Below, in pieces: positions 38,291 to 45,122 of a DNA stretch of 64,000 nt. The notes under the pieces were generated by a model, which saw only the letters and a list, made by a program, of their open reading frames with translations, was not told the origin of the DNA and made no database searches. The DNA lies in NCBI GenBank assembly GCA_028821605.1, contig JAPPFM010000053.1:124001-188000 (forward strand). Reading direction: 5' to 3'. The number at the start of each line of letters is the position of its first letter. The stretch's first letter is position 1. This DNA is from Candidatus Poribacteria bacterium. Lineage in GTDB: Bacteria > Poribacteria > WGA-4E > WGA-3G. The translations under genes were made by a program, and so were the position numbers.

Positions 38291-38512
38291 ATGAAAGCCA
38301 AGCAGCTCTATCTCATTAAGGAAGCAAAATCTCACGTCCGCATGGCTGGAAAAATCCATGTGAGAGCGCACCGTAGACGCAACGGTAGTTACGTCAAAGA
38401 GCATTGGCGGCGGAAACCGAGTAAAAAGGTTGGCACTCACAGACAATTTGAGCAAATCCGCTTTTTTGAAGACGATATGCAACTTCCACTCTTTGAAGAC
38501 GACAACACCTGA
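38291..38512 (+). CDS. small basic protein, 73 residues
   Basis: Rich in Arg/Lys/His in its first two-thirds: HVRAHRRRNGSYVKEHWRRK, a 'V.aH.R..G.yV..H.R' pattern seen in short basic segments of many bacterial proteins, then an acidic end (FFEDDMQLPLFEDDNT). Could bind nucleic acid. No clear ribosome site. Function unknown. Confidence 0.55.
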   Translation: MKAKQLYLIKEAKSHVRMAGKIHVRAHRRRNGSYVKEHWRRKPSKKVGTHRQFEQIRFFEDDMQLPLFEDDNT

Positions 38513-38546
38513 CGTTGACAACACGTCGAAAGGGTTATGTGAGCAG

Positions 38547-39776
38547 ATGGCAGTCCGATGGTGTCTGTGGTATCATCGAGCGAGTCACATCTTCTCCCAA
38601 AATGCTATGATCTACTTTTTGCGAAGCTTGCAAGGATCCCGTTTTACATTATGGCACTTGCAAGCTCTGATTATTTTGCTGTTTTTCATCGCAACGACCA
38701 CACTTTTCGGTGATGTTTACCGCATCAAAAAGGGAGACACACTCCTGATTGCGGTGATCGGGCAGCCGGAGTATACACATTCCGTGCAGGTCCGTGAAGA
38801 TGGCAGAATTAGTTACTTTGGCGGCGATTTTGACGTTGCTGGACAGACAGTCTCGACGGTCAATCAGCAAATTCGCGAGTTTCTCGTTACGGAAGGGCTT
38901 GTCAGTAATCCCGTCGTTATGGTGTCGCCAGTGTTGCAAGAGAGCGGTGTTTTCGTCGGTGGTGCTGTGAAAGCACCGGGACGTTATCCCATTTCACCGG
39001 AAACTGACATCGGTTTATACCGTGCCATCGCGCTCGCAGGTGGTATGGCAGAGAACGCTGATCGCCAAGGGGTGCAGTTAATTCGGACCGACACAGCGCA
39101 AAAAGTTGAGACTTACGATCTCTCGACAAACCGTCCTTACAGCAACATCCGTGTCAATATCAACGATTTGGTGTTCGTCATGCCGCTAAGTGTCGTTGAG
39201 GTGCAAGGGCAGGTGCAGACTCCCGGAAAGCTTTTTATTCAAAGGCAGATTAGCATTGTGGAGGCACTTGCACGTGCAGGAGGTCCCACCCAAGAGGCAG
39301 ATCTCACCGCGGTGGTGAAAGTTGAAAAAAACGGAAAACTCTCCGAATTCAATCTCTCAGAACAGTTTTGGAAATCCCCACCGAACGGTACGCCTTTTCC
39401 CGCTTTATCAAACGGCGATGTGTTGTTTGTTTCCAACGTCTTCAAAGTCGAGCCTATCTATGTAACCGGCTATGTTCATAGTCCCGGTGCCCAACGCGTT
39501 CGGGGACCCTTGAAACTCTCACAAGCGATCGCCCTTAGTGGTGGGTTTGAAGCAGCAGCGAACCGCGAGGAGGTCCTCATTCACCGTCGTGAGGGCACAA
39601 TCTTGGAGGTGCCTTTTACGAGCGGTCCTACGGATGGTACGACACAACAGGTTTTGCTCTACCCGGGTGACATCTTAGAAGTGAAAAAGAAGTTTCAGAT
39701 AAATTGGGGTCTTGTCAGTACGCTTGGCTACTTCGTCCTCAGCGGCGTGGGCATTATAATCCAACTAACGAAGTAA
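38547..39776 (+). CDS. polysaccharide biosynthesis/export protein (Poly_export plus SLBB domains)
   Basis: About 409 residues from ATG 38547; ATG 38607 is equally possible, while the upper start at 38430 overlaps the basic-protein gene. A membrane/signal segment (ALIILLFFIATTTLFGD) precedes the Poly_export domain (VYRIKKGDTLLIAVIGQPEY, VREDGRISYFGGDFDVAG). SLBB repeats follow: VFVGGAVKAPGRYPI, VEVQGQVQTPGKLFI and YVTGYVHSPGAQRV. A final hydrophobic stretch (LVSTLGYFVLSGVGIII) resembles a membrane anchor. It is Wza-like and so forms or lines an exit for extracellular polysaccharide. No polymerase or glycosyltransferase is nearby. Confidence 0.88.
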   Translation: MAVRWCLWYHRASHIFSQNAMIYFLRSLQGSRFTLWHLQALIILLFFIATTTLFGDVYRIKKGDTLLIAVIGQPEYTHSVQVREDGRISYFGGDFDVAGQTVSTVNQQIREFLVTEGLVSNPVVMVSPVLQESGVFVGGAVKAPGRYPISPETDIGLYRAIALAGGMAENADRQGVQLIRTDTAQKVETYDLSTNRPYSNIRVNINDLVFVMPLSVVEVQGQVQTPGKLFIQRQISIVEALARAGGPTQEADLTAVVKVEKNGKLSEFNLSEQFWKSPPNGTPFPALSNGDVLFVSNVFKVEPIYVTGYVHSPGAQRVRGPLKLSQAIALSGGFEAAANREEVLIHRREGTILEVPFTSGPTDGTTQQVLLYPGDILEVKKKFQINWGLVSTLGYFVLSGVGIIIQLTK

Positions 39777-39801
39777 ATTGTAAGAAAGGGAAAATAGGAA
39801 T

Positions 39802-40641
39802 ATGAACGAGAATCCTTCGCAGGAGTTTGCTCTTGGTCAAATTGTTTTTTTGGAATCAGATCCCTCTATCCGTGGGGTCGTTGTTGAGGTATTAGCTGGG
39901 AGTAGTGAAAACCAGATCACCGTTTTTGCTGATGGTAAGATCCAGAGTTTTGATGCTTCTCAGTTGCAGGTGAGCACATCTTCGGATATTCTCAACCAAA
40001 TTATTAATGCCTCACCTGAGACAATTGAGCAAATTGAGTCATTGCTCCAATCGCCCGCCGAATCTACGCCGACCATCTCACCGCCACCTCAAGAGGAATC
40101 AAGCGTTGCGTCAGCAGAGCAGGACGAGAAGCAGCAGAAAAAATCTCAACCATCGAAGAAAAAGAGCAGTAATTGGGACGCTGACAGGCTCCTAAGCCAA
40201 TATTTCGCGCAACCTGTCCGCTTTATCACATATACAGGTATAAAGGATCTATCCGAAATTAAAGCAAAACCTTATACCGTATGGGGCAGTGATGCCAAGG
40301 GTAAAGAGGTTAAGATGGCGAAAATTCAGGTCCTGTTTGCATTTCCGAAGGAGAAGATGCCGGACCTGAAACCTTATGTGAAAGTAAGGCAACCGTTGAA
40401 AGTGCAAAACCTTCAGCCGATTGAGAACCCAGACGAACGGTTCCATGTTGATGACGAACTTCTTAAGCAGGCGCGAGAAAACAAATCTAACGTCAATATT
40501 GTCACACGGGCAGGATACGTCTTGAATGGCTGGCTCCAACATTTTGACGAATATGTTCTCTATATGCGGATCGGAGAGAAGGTCGTAGTTGTGTATCGAC
40601 ACAGCTTGTTTGAGTTCACGGTTGGGGAGCAAGAAAGCTAA
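39802..40641 (+). CDS. protein with probable tandem Sm/Hfq-like domains
   Basis: 279 residues. Residues about 8-58 form a small beta domain (FALGQIVFLESDPSIRGVVV) like KOW/Tudor-type modules. A Pro/Ser/Lys-rich linker (about 85-125) follows. Residues about 127-185 read DRLLSQYFAQPVRFITYTG, a middle strand YTVWGSDAKGKEV, then KMAKIQVLFAFP. Residues about 220-275 read LLKQARENKSNVNIVTRAGY, LNGWLQHFDEYVLYM and VVVYRHSLFEFTV. The last block lines up with Hfq from its N-terminal helix through Sm1 (G...L.G....FD.yV) to Sm2 (vYrHsl). The first block fits the same plan less closely. It would be an RNA-binding protein, untested. GAAAGGG-type ribosome site. No other RNA-regulation gene nearby. Confidence 0.6.
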   Translation: MNENPSQEFALGQIVFLESDPSIRGVVVEVLAGSSENQITVFADGKIQSFDASQLQVSTSSDILNQIINASPETIEQIESLLQSPAESTPTISPPPQEESSVASAEQDEKQQKKSQPSKKKSSNWDADRLLSQYFAQPVRFITYTGIKDLSEIKAKPYTVWGSDAKGKEVKMAKIQVLFAFPKEKMPDLKPYVKVRQPLKVQNLQPIENPDERFHVDDELLKQARENKSNVNIVTRAGYVLNGWLQHFDEYVLYMRIGEKVVVVYRHSLFEFTVGEQES

Positions 40642-40650
40642 CCTTCTGGA

Positions 40651-40796
40651 ATTATAGTAAAATCCGAAAACATGTTTGCAGTTCGTCAGTGAACGGGAGC
40701 CCCACCGCCGCTGGCGAGGGTGTTTTTGCTGGGGTGTTTCTTCTAGTATCCTCGCCATTGCATTGGTGTATAGGTAATTACGGGTTTTACTATAAT
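40651..40796. mobile_element. MITE-like foldback element
   Basis: 146 bases bounded by 16-bp inverted ends: ATTATAGTAAAATCCG (40651-40666) and CGGGTTTTACTATAAT (40781-40796), one mismatch. An internal stem GGCGAGG / CCTCGCC adds a foldback. No coding capacity. No clear target-site duplication. It sits at the border between the Sm-like gene and the restriction-modification gene. Confidence 0.65.
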
Positions 40797-40824
40797 CAAA
40801 CTCACGTCAATTAGGAACGCTCCA

Positions 40825-40867
40825 TAATCCTATAAATCCTATAATCCTGTAAATCCTGATTCAGACA
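40825..40867. repeat. short tandem oligonucleotide repeat
   Basis: About four imperfect copies of an 8-9 base unit AATCCTRTA (ATAATCCTATA, AATCCTATA, ATCCTGTA, AATCCTGATTCAGACAA). Sequences of this kind recur in the gaps before accessory genes in several environmental phyla, as I recall. Non-coding; not a CRISPR. Confidence 0.6.
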
Positions 40868-40884
40868 ACAAGCAAAAAACACCG

Positions 40885-43800
40885 ATGCCACACCTTAACA
40901 TAAAACCCACACACAAACCTATCAAGACCTACTACGCCGAGCTCCAAGAATATGACAACATCGGTGTAGCACACGAAGGCGCAGTCCGAACCGCATTCCA
41001 AAATCTACTCCAACACTACTGCCGACAAGCATCCCTAACCCTTGTTTGTGAAAGACCGCACTACACAGCGGAAAATAAGCGCATCCGACCCGATGGCGAA
41101 GTCGTCGATACCTTCGGGCTGCCTTACGGTTATTGGGAAGCAAAGGATACGCAGGACGACCTCTACACCGAAACAGCCAAAAAGTTTGACGCGGGCTACC
41201 CCTCAAAAAACATCGTCGTCCAATCCCCGACGCATGCACTCCTCTATCAGCACGGGCAACTGCAGTTGGACTTGGACATCACTGAGCCGAGAAACCTCGT
41301 CCATGTTCTCCAGACTTTCTTCGCATATCAGGAGGAGAACATCTCGGCATGGCATACGGCAGTTGCTGAGTTCAGGGAAACGGTGCCGGAACTCGGCAAG
41401 AAGTTGACGGTACTCATTGAAACGGAACGCCAAAATAACTCTCAATTTCAGGTCGCATTCACCAATTTCCATCAGCAATGCCAGGCTTTAATCAACCCGA
41501 ATCTCTCCATCGCTGCGGTGGAGGAGATGCTCGTCCAACACCTGCTAACAGAACGCATCTTCCGCACCGTCTTTAACAATCCTGACTTCACACGTCGTAA
41601 TATCATCGCACGCGAAATTGAGAACGTCATTGACGCACTCACCTCACAGACGTTTGACCGCAACCGGTTCCTCCAGAGTTTAGATCCGTTCTACGTTGCG
41701 ATTGAGCAAACCGCTGCTGCTATCACCAACTTCTCACAAAAACAGGGATTCCTCAACACTGTCTATGAGCAGTTTTTTCAGGGTTTCTCCGTCAAAGTTG
41801 CAGACACGCACGGCATCGTCTACACACCGCAGCCGATCGTCGATTTCATGGTGAAAAGCGTTGAGCATATTTTACAGACCGAATTCAACCGTTCTCTTTG
41901 CGATAGCGGTGTAAATATCATTGATCCATTTGTTGGCACCGGCAACTTTATTGTCAGAATTATGCAGGAACTTGATCCCATCTCGTTAGAGCGGAAATAC
42001 ACTGCCGACCCACCAGAACTCCAGTGTAACGAAGTGATGCTCCTGCCCTACTACATCGCCAATCTCAACATAGAGCACGAGTTCTACACGGCGACGAACC
42101 GGTATGTTCCTTATGAAGGTCTATGCTTGGTGGATACCTTTGAGGTCGCTAAAGCGCGGCAGGTACCGCTATTCACCCCGGACAATACGGCGCGCGTTGA
42201 GAAGCAGAAGGAAACACCGATGTTCGTTGTTATCGGCAACCCGCCCTACAATGTGGGACAGGTCAACGAGAACGACAACAACAAAAACCGGAAGTATGAG
42301 GCGATGGACAAGTTGATTGCTGAGACATACGCGAAAGACTCCAAAGCGACACTCAGAAGTCAACTTTACGATCCTTATGTCAAGGCAATTCGATGGGCAT
42401 TGGACCGAATTGGTGAGGAAGGCGTTGTTGCTTTCGTAACAAATAACAGTTTTCTTGAAGGACTGGCGTTTGACGGCATGCGGAAACACCTCGCAGAAGG
42501 CTGCGACGCGATCTATATTTTGGATTTAGGAGGCAATGCCCGGAAAGGATTGAAGGTCTCCGATGCGAATGTGTTTGGAATTCGGGTGGGAGTGAGCATC
42601 AACCTGTTTGTGAAAAAGAAAGGACGTTCGTCGAGGGCACCGCGACTCTTTTACTATCGCACTGATGACCTATGGAACAGAGAACGGAAATTCGTTTTTC
42701 TGAATGAACGTCAACACATCGGGAACCGTATTGTGTGGCAGGTGATTACACCTGATGCACGGAATACATGGCTAACCGAAGGACTCCACGCCGAGTTTGA
42801 TACCTTTACCCCAATGGGAACTAAGGAGACAAAGGCAGTAGAAAGTGAGGCAGTGGACGTGATTTTCAAAACCTACAGCAACGGTGTGAAAACCAATCGT
42901 GATGCATGGGTTTGCAATTTCAACCGAAACGCACTTGTTGAAAATACAAGCAAAATGATTGAAACTTACAATGCGGAAATGGCTCGATGGGTGCAACGGA
43001 CGAATCGGGATACTAATCTTGATGATTTTGTGATCTCTGATGAGACGAAAATCAAGTGGAGTTCAACTTTAAAGCAAAAGTTGCAGAGCGGTCAAATTGT
43101 GGCATTTACAGATACAAGAATTCGACAATCCCTTTATCGGCCATTTATAAAATCGCACCTTTACTTTGACAGAATAATGAACGATAGGGTACTCAGGTTT
43201 CCTTTTATCTTCCCTACACCGAAAATCGAAAGCGAGAATCGGGTGATATGGCTTAAAGTCGGGAAAGAGTGGCCTATGTTTGGACTAATGGTCAATCAAC
43301 TTCCTGATCAGTTACCGCAGGGCGGTTCTCAATGTTTCCCCTTCTACATCTACGACGAGGACGGCACAAACCGCCGCGAGAACATCACTAATTGGGCGTT
43401 GGCGGAGTTCCGAGCGCATTACGAGGATGACACTATCACCAAGTGGGACATCTTCCACTACAACTATGGATTCTTGCATCATCCTGCGTATCGTGAAAAA
43501 TACGAAGCGAACCTCAAGCGCGATCTTCCGCATATTCCGTTCGCGAAGGGCTTCTGGGCGTTTGCGGAGGCAGGCGCACAGTTAGCGGACCTCCACGTCA
43601 ACTATGAATCCCAACCCGAATACGATAAACTAAAGTTCATCCAGAACCCGGATGTGCCGCTCGATTGGCGTGTTGAGAAAATGAAGCTTTCAAAGGACAA
43701 AACCTCGCTTGTCTACAACGATTTTCTAACGATCAGTGGTATTCCTGAAAAGGCGTTTGATTACCGGCTCGGCACCCGCTCCGCGTTAGAATGGATAATT

Positions 43801-43962
43801 AATCAATATTGTGTTAAAATAGATAAACGGAGCGGAATCGTCAACGACCCGAACCGTGCAGATGACCCACAGTACATCGTCAAACTCATCGGGAAGGTGA
43901 TTACCGTCAGTTTGGAGACGGTGGATATTGTTGAGGGATTGCCGGACTTGGATTTAGGATAG
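40885..43962 (+). CDS. type ISP-like single-chain restriction-modification enzyme
   Basis: 1025 residues. N-terminal PD-(D/E)xK nuclease: Asp70 (RPDGEVVD) and Glu85-Ala-Lys87 (YWEAKDT). Then a helical part, and an N6-adenine methyltransferase with SAM motif I DPFVGTGNF (347-355) and catalytic NPPY (452-455). The rest includes a target-recognition region (KVGKEWPMFGLM..., YDEDGTNRRENITNWALAEFR). No helicase motifs are evident between nuclease and methylase, so it is shorter than the classical type ISP translocating enzymes and may act more like a type IIG enzyme. It opens a probable defence island continuing to 46271. Confidence 0.9.
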   Translation: MPHLNIKPTHKPIKTYYAELQEYDNIGVAHEGAVRTAFQNLLQHYCRQASLTLVCERPHYTAENKRIRPDGEVVDTFGLPYGYWEAKDTQDDLYTETAKKFDAGYPSKNIVVQSPTHALLYQHGQLQLDLDITEPRNLVHVLQTFFAYQEENISAWHTAVAEFRETVPELGKKLTVLIETERQNNSQFQVAFTNFHQQCQALINPNLSIAAVEEMLVQHLLTERIFRTVFNNPDFTRRNIIAREIENVIDALTSQTFDRNRFLQSLDPFYVAIEQTAAAITNFSQKQGFLNTVYEQFFQGFSVKVADTHGIVYTPQPIVDFMVKSVEHILQTEFNRSLCDSGVNIIDPFVGTGNFIVRIMQELDPISLERKYTADPPELQCNEVMLLPYYIANLNIEHEFYTATNRYVPYEGLCLVDTFEVAKARQVPLFTPDNTARVEKQKETPMFVVIGNPPYNVGQVNENDNNKNRKYEAMDKLIAETYAKDSKATLRSQLYDPYVKAIRWALDRIGEEGVVAFVTNNSFLEGLAFDGMRKHLAEGCDAIYILDLGGNARKGLKVSDANVFGIRVGVSINLFVKKKGRSSRAPRLFYYRTDDLWNRERKFVFLNERQHIGNRIVWQVITPDARNTWLTEGLHAEFDTFTPMGTKETKAVESEAVDVIFKTYSNGVKTNRDAWVCNFNRNALVENTSKMIETYNAEMARWVQRTNRDTNLDDFVISDETKIKWSSTLKQKLQSGQIVAFTDTRIRQSLYRPFIKSHLYFDRIMNDRVLRFPFIFPTPKIESENRVIWLKVGKEWPMFGLMVNQLPDQLPQGGSQCFPFYIYDEDGTNRRENITNWALAEFRAHYEDDTITKWDIFHYNYGFLHHPAYREKYEANLKRDLPHIPFAKGFWAFAEAGAQLADLHVNYESQPEYDKLKFIQNPDVPLDWRVEKMKLSKDKTSLVYNDFLTISGIPEKAFDYRLGTRSALEWIINQYCVKIDKRSGIVNDPNRADDPQYIVKLIGKVITVSLETVDIVEGLPDLDLG

Positions 43963-43988
43963 AGAGGCATGGGTTTAGGGAGAAAGTC

Positions 43989-44741
43989 ATGGGAATCATA
44001 GAGTGGCTAAACGCAAATAGTGGCGCAATAATCGTGATTGTCGCTATCGTGCTTGTTGGTGTCATTAGTTATTACGCCTATCTGACGTGGCGGCTACTGA
44101 AAGCGAGTAACATACCTGAAATTGTTGTCTCTTTGCGTCCGCATCAAGTGCACGTTCAGCTCGTCATACTCTGCATAGAGAACATAGGGACGGGGGCAGC
44201 CCGTGATCTACAGTTCACAACAAATCCCACTTCTATACCTAATCTTGACGTGCCATTTGAGAAAATTGGTTTTCTCAAAAGTGGAATCGCTTACTTTGAA
44301 CCGGGACGAAAGATTGAGCAATTTATAGTTAGTGTAACAAACAAGTTTGATGAACTAAAACAGATGCCATTCGAGGTCAGTTTAACATATAGGGATTCAG
44401 TTAACCAGAAACATAAACGCACATTTCAACTTGATTTTGGTGAGAATGAAGGCTTCTCACAAATTGACAACCCACCATTGTTTGAAATTGCCAAAGCTAC
44501 AAGAGATATCCAAAGGGATATACGTAATATTGCCACGGGTATGCATAAACCCATAATTCTTACGGAAACAGTGTCTGAGCATCGCTTGAGGCAGCGCGTC
44601 AATGCCTTGGAGAGTCGGATAGAACAACTTCCTAACGAGGTTCAAGAAGAAATTTTACAGGAATTAGTCATTGTTGTCACTAAGCGAGAGCAGGAAAAAG
44701 ATCAAAGTGAAGAGCCAATAACGGTAGAAAATTTATCATAA
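43989..44741 (+). CDS. single-span membrane protein in the restriction island
   Basis: 250 residues. Membrane segment about 12-34 (IIVIVAIVLVGVISYYAYL), then a beta-rich domain (VHVQLVILCIENIGTGAARD ... VSLTYRDSVNQKHKRTFQL), a helical segment (IAKATRDIQRDIRNIATGM) and a final coiled coil (RLRQRVNALESRIEQLP). GGGAGAAA ribosome site 27 bases after the restriction-modification gene. Family unknown; the neighbour suggests but does not show a defence role. Confidence 0.7.
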   Translation: MGIIEWLNANSGAIIVIVAIVLVGVISYYAYLTWRLLKASNIPEIVVSLRPHQVHVQLVILCIENIGTGAARDLQFTTNPTSIPNLDVPFEKIGFLKSGIAYFEPGRKIEQFIVSVTNKFDELKQMPFEVSLTYRDSVNQKHKRTFQLDFGENEGFSQIDNPPLFEIAKATRDIQRDIRNIATGMHKPIILTETVSEHRLRQRVNALESRIEQLPNEVQEEILQELVIVVTKREQEKDQSEEPITVENLS

Positions 44742-44757
44742 AGAGGAGGTGAGATAA

Positions 44758-44988
44758 GTGCCAATTACAGTCTATATTCACTCTAATAATGGTTTTGTTA
44801 TAGAGGTTCCTGATGGCAGAGAGGAGCCGTTGGCGGGTAACAATCAACAGTTATCGCATAAGGAATTTAAAGCGGCATTACAGAGATTAGCAGAACTATC
44901 TATGAAATTTGACGCTCGTGATTCCCAACCATTATCTGATTACGCGATGAGCCGCGAAAGCATATACGAAAATCACCCAAAATTATGA
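44758..44988 (+). CDS. probable antitoxin of a VapBC-like pair
   Basis: 76 residues, GTG start with AGAGGAGG upstream. MPITVYIHSNNGFVIEVPDG, then LSHKEFKAALQRLAELSMKF and an acidic tail. Its stop overlaps the start of a truncated PIN-domain frame (ATGA), the classic antitoxin-toxin layout. No known DNA-binding motif is clear, so the antitoxin call rests on context. Confidence 0.5.
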   Translation: MPITVYIHSNNGFVIEVPDGREEPLAGNNQQLSHKEFKAALQRLAELSMKFDARDSQPLSDYAMSRESIYENHPKL

Positions 44989-45122
44989 TTTATCTGGTTG
45001 ATACCAATGTTTTATTGGGGGTTGCACATCGTACTAATGTTCGTTATTCAATTGTTCAGAATTTCTCATTTTTCCAAGAAAAACAATCCTATTTTCAACA
45101 AACAGAGCATGTTAGCACTTAG
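44985..45122 (+). pseudogene. truncated PIN-domain (VapC-like) toxin
   Basis: 45 residues starting MIYLVDTNVLLGVAHRTNVR, the opening strand and first catalytic Asp of PIN ribonucleases followed by the usual 'hr.n.r...v' helix. It stops at TAG 45120-45122 where a full toxin would be about 130 residues. The rest of the gene is gone, replaced by the leader of the AAA ATPase gene. Confidence 0.7.

What the first reader, a model, noticed from the sequence alone, without database searches (positions are those of the whole stretch)
39802..40641. A single protein with an N-terminal beta module and two tandem Sm/Hfq-like domains
The C-terminal block (residues about 220-275) follows the Hfq plan step by step: a helix (LLKQARENK), strand and Gly turn (VNIVTRAGYVLNG), a FD.yV strand, and VYRH with a terminal strand. 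The block at 127-185 repeats the plan more loosely (LLSQYFAQPVRFITYTG, then YTVWGSDAKGKEV and KIQVLFAF). Tandem Hfq-like folds in one chain would give a ring with half the number of subunits, and I know of no described example of this layout with a KOW-like front and long linker.
Basis: partly seen in the sequence, partly recalled or inferred. Interest (0 to 1): 0.8.

Follow-up and report, generated by a model that had tools for sequence, protein, structure and literature searches.

The report
Tandem Hfq protein in Poribacteria
This gene encodes a protein with two fused Hfq-type RNA-binding domains, one clear and one strongly diverged, belonging to a module that seems to stand in for ordinary Hfq across the sponge-associated phylum Poribacteria and has been joined repeatedly to anti-phage-type proteins.

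Summary
The ORF (39802-40641 +, 279 aa, Ca. Poribacteria) is real and under purifying selection (omega 0.20-0.38). The C-terminal half is an Hfq domain (Pfam Hfq 38 bits, cut-off 27). The first half (about 124-187) matches no library, but it is homologous to the first half of a phylum-wide family, which in turn matches Hfq plus single-domain poribacterial Hfq relatives (hhalign E 7e-8, 0/200 shuffles). So tandem Hfq is supported by sequence; both AlphaFold runs were low confidence and the fold stays unconfirmed. The tandem occurs in 55 of 56 good Poribacteria genomes. The own genome has three copies and no ordinary single-domain Hfq. The commonest forms are a cold-shock-domain fusion and stand-alone tandems; others sit on GmrSD, sacsin-like ATPase, UvrD/GajB-like and RNase-H-like proteins. 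This copy's 'KOW-like' front is the N-terminus of DrmD-like SNF2 helicases of the same locus in relatives, and its linker matches sacsin-like ATPases there: a mosaic inside a defence island. The halves are asymmetric: Lys174 only in the first, Arg-His266-267 in the second. Best mechanism: three chains form a pseudo-hexameric Hfq-like ring (inferred). Tandem Hfq chains were already known (NF010691), so this is a new variant.

The parts
39802..40641 (+). tandem-Hfq protein, 279 aa (P0001)
   Evidence: omega 0.20-0.38 against orthologues
39802..39972 (+). residues 1-57, N-terminal beta-rich module shared with the N-terminus of DrmD-like SNF2 helicases
   Evidence: phmmer E 6e-20 to 1e-16 to the first ~62 residues of ~1020-aa helicase ORFs; helicases score PADLOC DrmD 1e-111; no Pfam family
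39973..40164 (+). residues 58-121, charged linker; 58-104 resemble a stretch of sacsin-like ATPase (TmtA-like) proteins (DILNQIINAPPETIEQIESLLQS)
   Evidence: blastp 43% over 88 aa, E 6e-14 against two sequences
40165..40362 (+). residues 122-187, first Hfq-type domain (diverged); K174 at 40321-40323
40363..40434 (+). residues 188-211, inter-domain segment, conserved in the family
   Evidence: alignments
40435..40629 (+). residues 212-276, second Hfq domain with Y-R-H at 265-267 (40594-40602)
38430..39776 (+). upstream ORF, polysaccharide-export/SLBB-like by inspection; its stop is 25 bases before the start codon of the tandem gene (true start of this ORF not determined)
   Evidence: same order in relatives
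40885..43962 (+). Type ISP/IIG restriction-modification enzyme, 1025 aa
   Evidence: Pfam Type_ISP_C E 4e-98; PADLOC REase_MTase_IIG E 6e-232

Best explanation
P0001 is an asymmetric tandem-Hfq protein of Poribacteria. Shown by sequence: the second domain is an Hfq domain; the first is a diverged Hfq-type domain; the pair is one inherited module found in nearly every Poribacteria genome, most often behind a cold-shock domain or standing alone, and repeatedly fused to nucleic-acid-acting, defence-type proteins; the gene is under selection. Inferred: three chains close into a pseudo-hexameric Sm-type ring with alternating first and second domains. The pore would carry Arg-His from the second domain and a single Lys from the first, at the positions of the proximal-face Lys56-His57 of E. 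coli Hfq, so the ring binds RNA three-fold rather than six-fold. The cold-shock-fused copy is proposed to do the general Hfq-like job. P0001, with a helicase-derived N-terminal module and a place beside a restriction-modification enzyme, is proposed to be an RNA-binding accessory of a locus that in relatives holds a DrmD-like helicase and a sacsin-like ATPase.
For: Second domain: Pfam Hfq 38.3 bits. First domain: profile chain with 0/200 shuffles at both links; the single-domain relative L206, which passes the Pfam cut-offs for Hfq_1 and Hfq, scores 33.9 bits with the cold-shock-type first-domain profile against a shuffle maximum of 10.3. Distribution: 79 of 85 genomes, 55 of 56 good ones; the own genome has only the three tandem copies above noise. 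Conservation: K174 92%; R236 90%, G238 99%, G243 100%, R/K266 about 90%, H267 88%. Fusions: GmrSD, sacsin-like ATPase, RNase_H_2, UvrD/GajB-like with GrpE and S1 domains, cold-shock domains. Locus: tandem gene, then DrmD-like helicase, then sacsin-like ATPase, between the same flanking genes in relatives. Selection. The residue match to E. coli Hfq is my reading of the alignments plus established knowledge of Hfq.
Against: No structural confirmation: AlphaFold pLDDT 38.8 and 36.9. The P0001 subtype of the first domain has no significant direct match to Hfq (3.5 bits to L206; hhalign E 0.09). Ring assembly and RNA binding are untested. The N-terminal module's omega against the nearest relative is about 1 over 57 codons with few changes. 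The tandem gene also stands without helicase and ATPase in many genomes, so the defence link for P0001 is by position and shared pieces only.
Confidence: 0.6

Rival explanations
1. Only the C-terminal half is an Sm domain; the first half is an unrelated beta-rich domain that co-evolved with it, and the protein forms an ordinary hexamer of second domains.
For: No Pfam hit for the first half; P0001-type first half against Hfq is not significant; AlphaFold inconclusive.
Against: Profile chain to Hfq through cold-shock-type first halves and L206, 0/200 shuffles at each link, in the expected register.
Confidence: 0.2
2. P0001 is a leftover of a lost DrmD-like helicase and sacsin-like ATPase pair, an in-frame deletion product without function.
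For: The N-module matches the helicase start and the linker matches the ATPase; the same slot holds helicase and ATPase in relatives.
Against: Intact in several species with omega 0.20-0.38 overall; a P0001-like gene coexists with helicase and ATPase genes in G026 (L046).
Confidence: 0.07
3. The tandem module is a protein-protein assembly scaffold (ring former) in defence complexes rather than an RNA binder.
For: Fusion to many different large effectors, at the N- or C-terminus, suggests an oligomerising module.
Against: Conserved basic pore-type residues and frequent pairing with RNA-binding CSD and S1 domains.
Confidence: 0.2

Closest known systems
Hfq (PF17209, TIGR02383)
   Same: The second domain matches over its length, including the two glycines of strands 1-2 and the Y-R/K-H motif.
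   Different: Two domains per chain, long N-terminal extension, first domain diverged and without the His; below the NCBI Hfq equivalog cut-off (32.1 versus 61.7 bits).
NCBIfam NF010691 / PRK14091, long Hfq with two Hfq halves
   Same: Two Hfq domains in one chain: single domains of our set match it at 23-76 and at 106-174.
   Different: P0001 scores 15.4 bits against a cut-off of 270; about 24-30 residue inter-domain segment and strongly unequal halves.
Hfq_1 (PF21979) and cyanobacterial Hfq-related proteins (NF047718)
   Same: The cold-shock-fused paralogue of the own genome matches over the cut-off in the genome search (29.4 bits); the single-domain relatives L206 and L207 match.
   Different: Those are single-domain models; P0001 itself is closer to PF17209.
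PafBC with two WYL domains of Sm fold (PMC6789036)
   Same: Two Sm-fold domains in one natural chain, proposed to bind nucleic acid.
   Different: Transcription factor with HTH and WCX domains; no sequence relation seen here.
DrmD of DISARM (SNF2 helicase)
   Same: Shares the first about 60 residues with DrmD-like helicases of the same locus in relatives.
   Different: P0001 has no helicase domain, and no other DISARM gene was looked for.

Membership tests
Hfq | Sm/Hfq sequence domain over curated cut-off | tested here: met
   PF17209 38.3 bits, cut-off 27, residues 218-270
Hfq | NCBI equivalog cut-off for Hfq proper | tested here: not met
   TIGR02383 32.1 bits, cut-off 61.7
Hfq | Proximal-face Y-K-H type motif | tested here: met
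   Second domain VYRH; R/K about 90%, H 88% in family
Hfq | Homo-hexameric ring | not testable with these tools
   no complex prediction available; single-chain models failed
Hfq | RNA chaperone activity | not testable with these tools
   needs experiment
Tandem Hfq (two Hfq-type domains per chain) | First half homologous to Hfq | tested here: met
   indirect, via cold-shock-type first halves and L206
Tandem Hfq (two Hfq-type domains per chain) | First half folds as five-stranded Sm barrel | tested here: inconclusive
   AlphaFold pLDDT under 40; the full-length model draws helix 127-134 and five strands, the tandem-only model draws two strands
NF010691 long Hfq | Curated cut-off | tested here: not met
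   15.4 bits against 270
KOW domain | Match to KOW or another SH3-like family model | tested here: not met
   no Pfam hit for residues 1-58 better than E 0.1
DISARM | drmD-type helicase next to the gene | tested here: not met
   absent beside the gene in the window; present in relatives
DISARM | drmA, drmB, drmC and a methylase | not tested
   only the neighbouring Type ISP enzyme was examined

The most novel reading that the evidence does not exclude
Poribacteria have replaced hexameric Hfq by a gene-fused pair of unlike Hfq domains that forms three-fold pseudo-hexameric rings, and use the same ring module as an interchangeable RNA-sensing part of anti-phage enzymes, so that RNA on an Hfq-type ring gates helicases and nucleases in immunity.
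Probability: 0.2. Interest if true: 0.9.

Novelty: new variant of a known kind. Interest (0 to 1): 0.62.

Why it matters
Hfq is usually treated as one small protein that assembles six-fold. A phylum in which an asymmetric fused pair seems to be the main or only Hfq, often tied to a cold-shock domain, offers a bacterial parallel to the heteromeric Sm/LSm rings of eukaryotes. The repeated fusion of that module to restriction, helicase and ATPase proteins raises the testable idea that Hfq-type rings take part in anti-phage defence.

Tried and rejected
Searching viral contigs with the tandem region gave nothing, nor did plasmids and phages; the cold-shock-type tandem gave only one weak partial plasmid hit in the second domain. 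One genome-contig scan found only Poribacteria, but its peptide patterns were specific, so absence from other phyla is not shown. Direct first-half versus Hfq comparison failed for the P0001 subtype alone. An early first-half comparison was contaminated by mixed subtypes and was redone. A non-functional remnant was rejected on selection. The literature library gave no account of tandem Hfq in Poribacteria; most subscription papers are not held. The meaning of PADLOC's TmtA label was not found in the library.

Full report
Observation. The ORF lies exactly where stated, 39802-40641 on the + strand, 279 aa, 25 bases after the stop of the preceding ORF on the same strand. The reverse strand in this register is broken by stops. 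The genome is a Candidatus Poribacteria assembly, judged by the titles of its nearest relatives.

Second domain. Residues 218-270 are an Hfq domain by Pfam (38.3 bits, cut-off 27), by NCBIfam as a weaker match below the equivalog cut-off, and by sequence match to solved Hfq structures (with a family profile E 3e-10 to 1kq1).

First domain. Residues 127-185 match no Pfam family alone. The tandem recurs in two subtypes: the P0001 type, and a type mostly fused behind a cold-shock domain. Alignments separated by subtype and realigned independently gave: P0001-type first half versus cold-shock-type first half, hhalign 87%, E 3.7e-6, 0 of 200 column shuffles reaching it; cold-shock-type first half versus canonical Hfq plus three single-domain poribacterial relatives, 95%, E 6.6e-8, 0 of 200; cold-shock-type first half versus the family's second half, 76%, E 2.4e-5, 0 of 200. 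The single-domain relative L206, which Pfam calls Hfq_1 and Hfq above cut-offs, scores 33.9 bits with the cold-shock-type first-half profile against a shuffle maximum of 10.3. The P0001-type first half has no significant direct match to Hfq, so the inference is transitive.

Structure. Two AlphaFold jobs gave mean pLDDT 38.8 and 36.9. The full-length model draws one helix and five strands for residues 127-182, the tandem-only model draws only two strands there; neither is evidence either way.

Family and distribution. A profile of the tandem matches 79 of 85 genomes of the phylum and 55 of 56 good ones. The own genome has three copies: P0001; a GmrSD protein with the tandem at its C-terminus (L002); and a cold-shock domain plus tandem, 316 aa (L003). 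Pfam Hfq finds no other domain above noise there. Single-domain forms were seen only in outlying lineages (L206 and L207 from G061; L209 from G053, which is a cold-shock domain plus one Hfq domain and may resemble an intermediate). Across fetched loci a motif-based count of distinct tandem sequences gives 49 cold-shock fusions, 49 short tandem-only ORFs, 5 with the N-module and 23 large or other fusions (rough, since the motif misses some cold-shock domains and some ORFs are cut by locus ends).

Fusions. Tandems sit in proteins with GmrSD (L002, L052, L054, L195; L053 and L058 are similar in length but were not family-scanned), sacsin-like HATPase scoring as PADLOC TmtA (L046, L047; L049 is similar by position), RNase_H_2 (L055), UvrD helicase with GrpE, and S1 in two of three, scoring as GajB-like (L191, L192, L194), and S1 plus cold-shock domains (L082). 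PADLOC matches name families, not tested function.

Anatomy of P0001. Residues 1-57 match the N-terminus of DrmD-like SNF2 helicases that follow the tandem gene, or occupy its slot, in relatives. Residues 58-104 match a stretch inside the sacsin-like ATPase, whose own C-terminus carries the tandem in L044. P0001 therefore looks like a mosaic of three pieces of one locus; which direction the pieces moved is unknown. G026 has a P0001-like gene together with helicase and ATPase genes (L046), so P0001 is not simply the scar of their loss. In the window the next gene is a Type ISP restriction-modification enzyme.

Selection and residues. Nei-Gojobori omega over the whole gene is 0.38, 0.20, 0.23 and 0.27 against four orthologues; the first domain 0.13-0.37, the second 0.12-0.25; the N-module 0.19-0.26 in three comparisons and about 1 in the closest pair, where changes are few. 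In 113 tandem sequences the first domain keeps Lys174 (92%), Tyr144 (88%) and Phe141 (83%); the second keeps Arg236 (90%), Gly238, Gly243, R/K266 and His267 (88%). By alignment, Lys174 and Arg266 fall on Lys56 of E. coli Hfq and His267 on His57; this correspondence is my reading and rests on established knowledge of Hfq.

Mechanism. Best supported: a pseudo-hexameric ring from three chains with two kinds of pore residue, binding RNA. Assembly and RNA binding are inferred. The cold-shock-fused copy is the likely general RNA chaperone because it is widespread and no ordinary Hfq was found in the own genome; P0001 is a specialised, defence-associated paralogue. The main alternatives are that only the second half is an Sm domain, or that the module mainly oligomerises its partners.

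Comparison with the known. Two Hfq domains per chain is not new: NF010691 is a 176-position Hfq model both halves of which match single Hfq domains, and fused PafBC has two Sm-fold WYL domains (PMC6789036). New here, as far as the held literature shows, are the unequal halves, the phylum-wide use apparently in place of ordinary Hfq, the cold-shock fusion and the reuse in defence-type proteins. Presence in other phyla was not tested adequately.

Noticed in passing
window 38430-45000; L046, L047, L048, L049, L050: A syntenic slot between an SLBB-like gene and a Type ISP restriction enzyme holds variable sets of DrmD-like helicase, sacsin-like ATPase and tandem-Hfq genes in related Poribacteria: a likely defence hotspot.
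   Followed up: partly
L003:1498-2448 (-), own genome C59: Cold-shock domain plus tandem Hfq, 316 aa, with counterparts in most genomes of the phylum; likely the main Hfq-type RNA chaperone of Poribacteria.
   Followed up: partly
L209:1116-1700 (-), G053: Cold-shock domain plus a single Hfq domain, 194 aa; may resemble the state before the Hfq domain was doubled.
   Followed up: partly
L191, L192, L194: Very large proteins joining UvrD helicase, GrpE and tandem Hfq, with S1 domains in L191 and L192 and a GIY-YIG match in L192 and L194.
   Followed up: no
L054:3715-7095 (+): GmrSD protein with two tandem-Hfq pairs (four Hfq-type domains) and two cold-shock stretches in one chain.
   Followed up: no
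L010, L062 (G008:C33) versus window 39802-39972: The N-terminal module's omega is about 1 between the two closest relatives while the rest is constrained; too few changes to say whether it is released or adapting.
   Followed up: no
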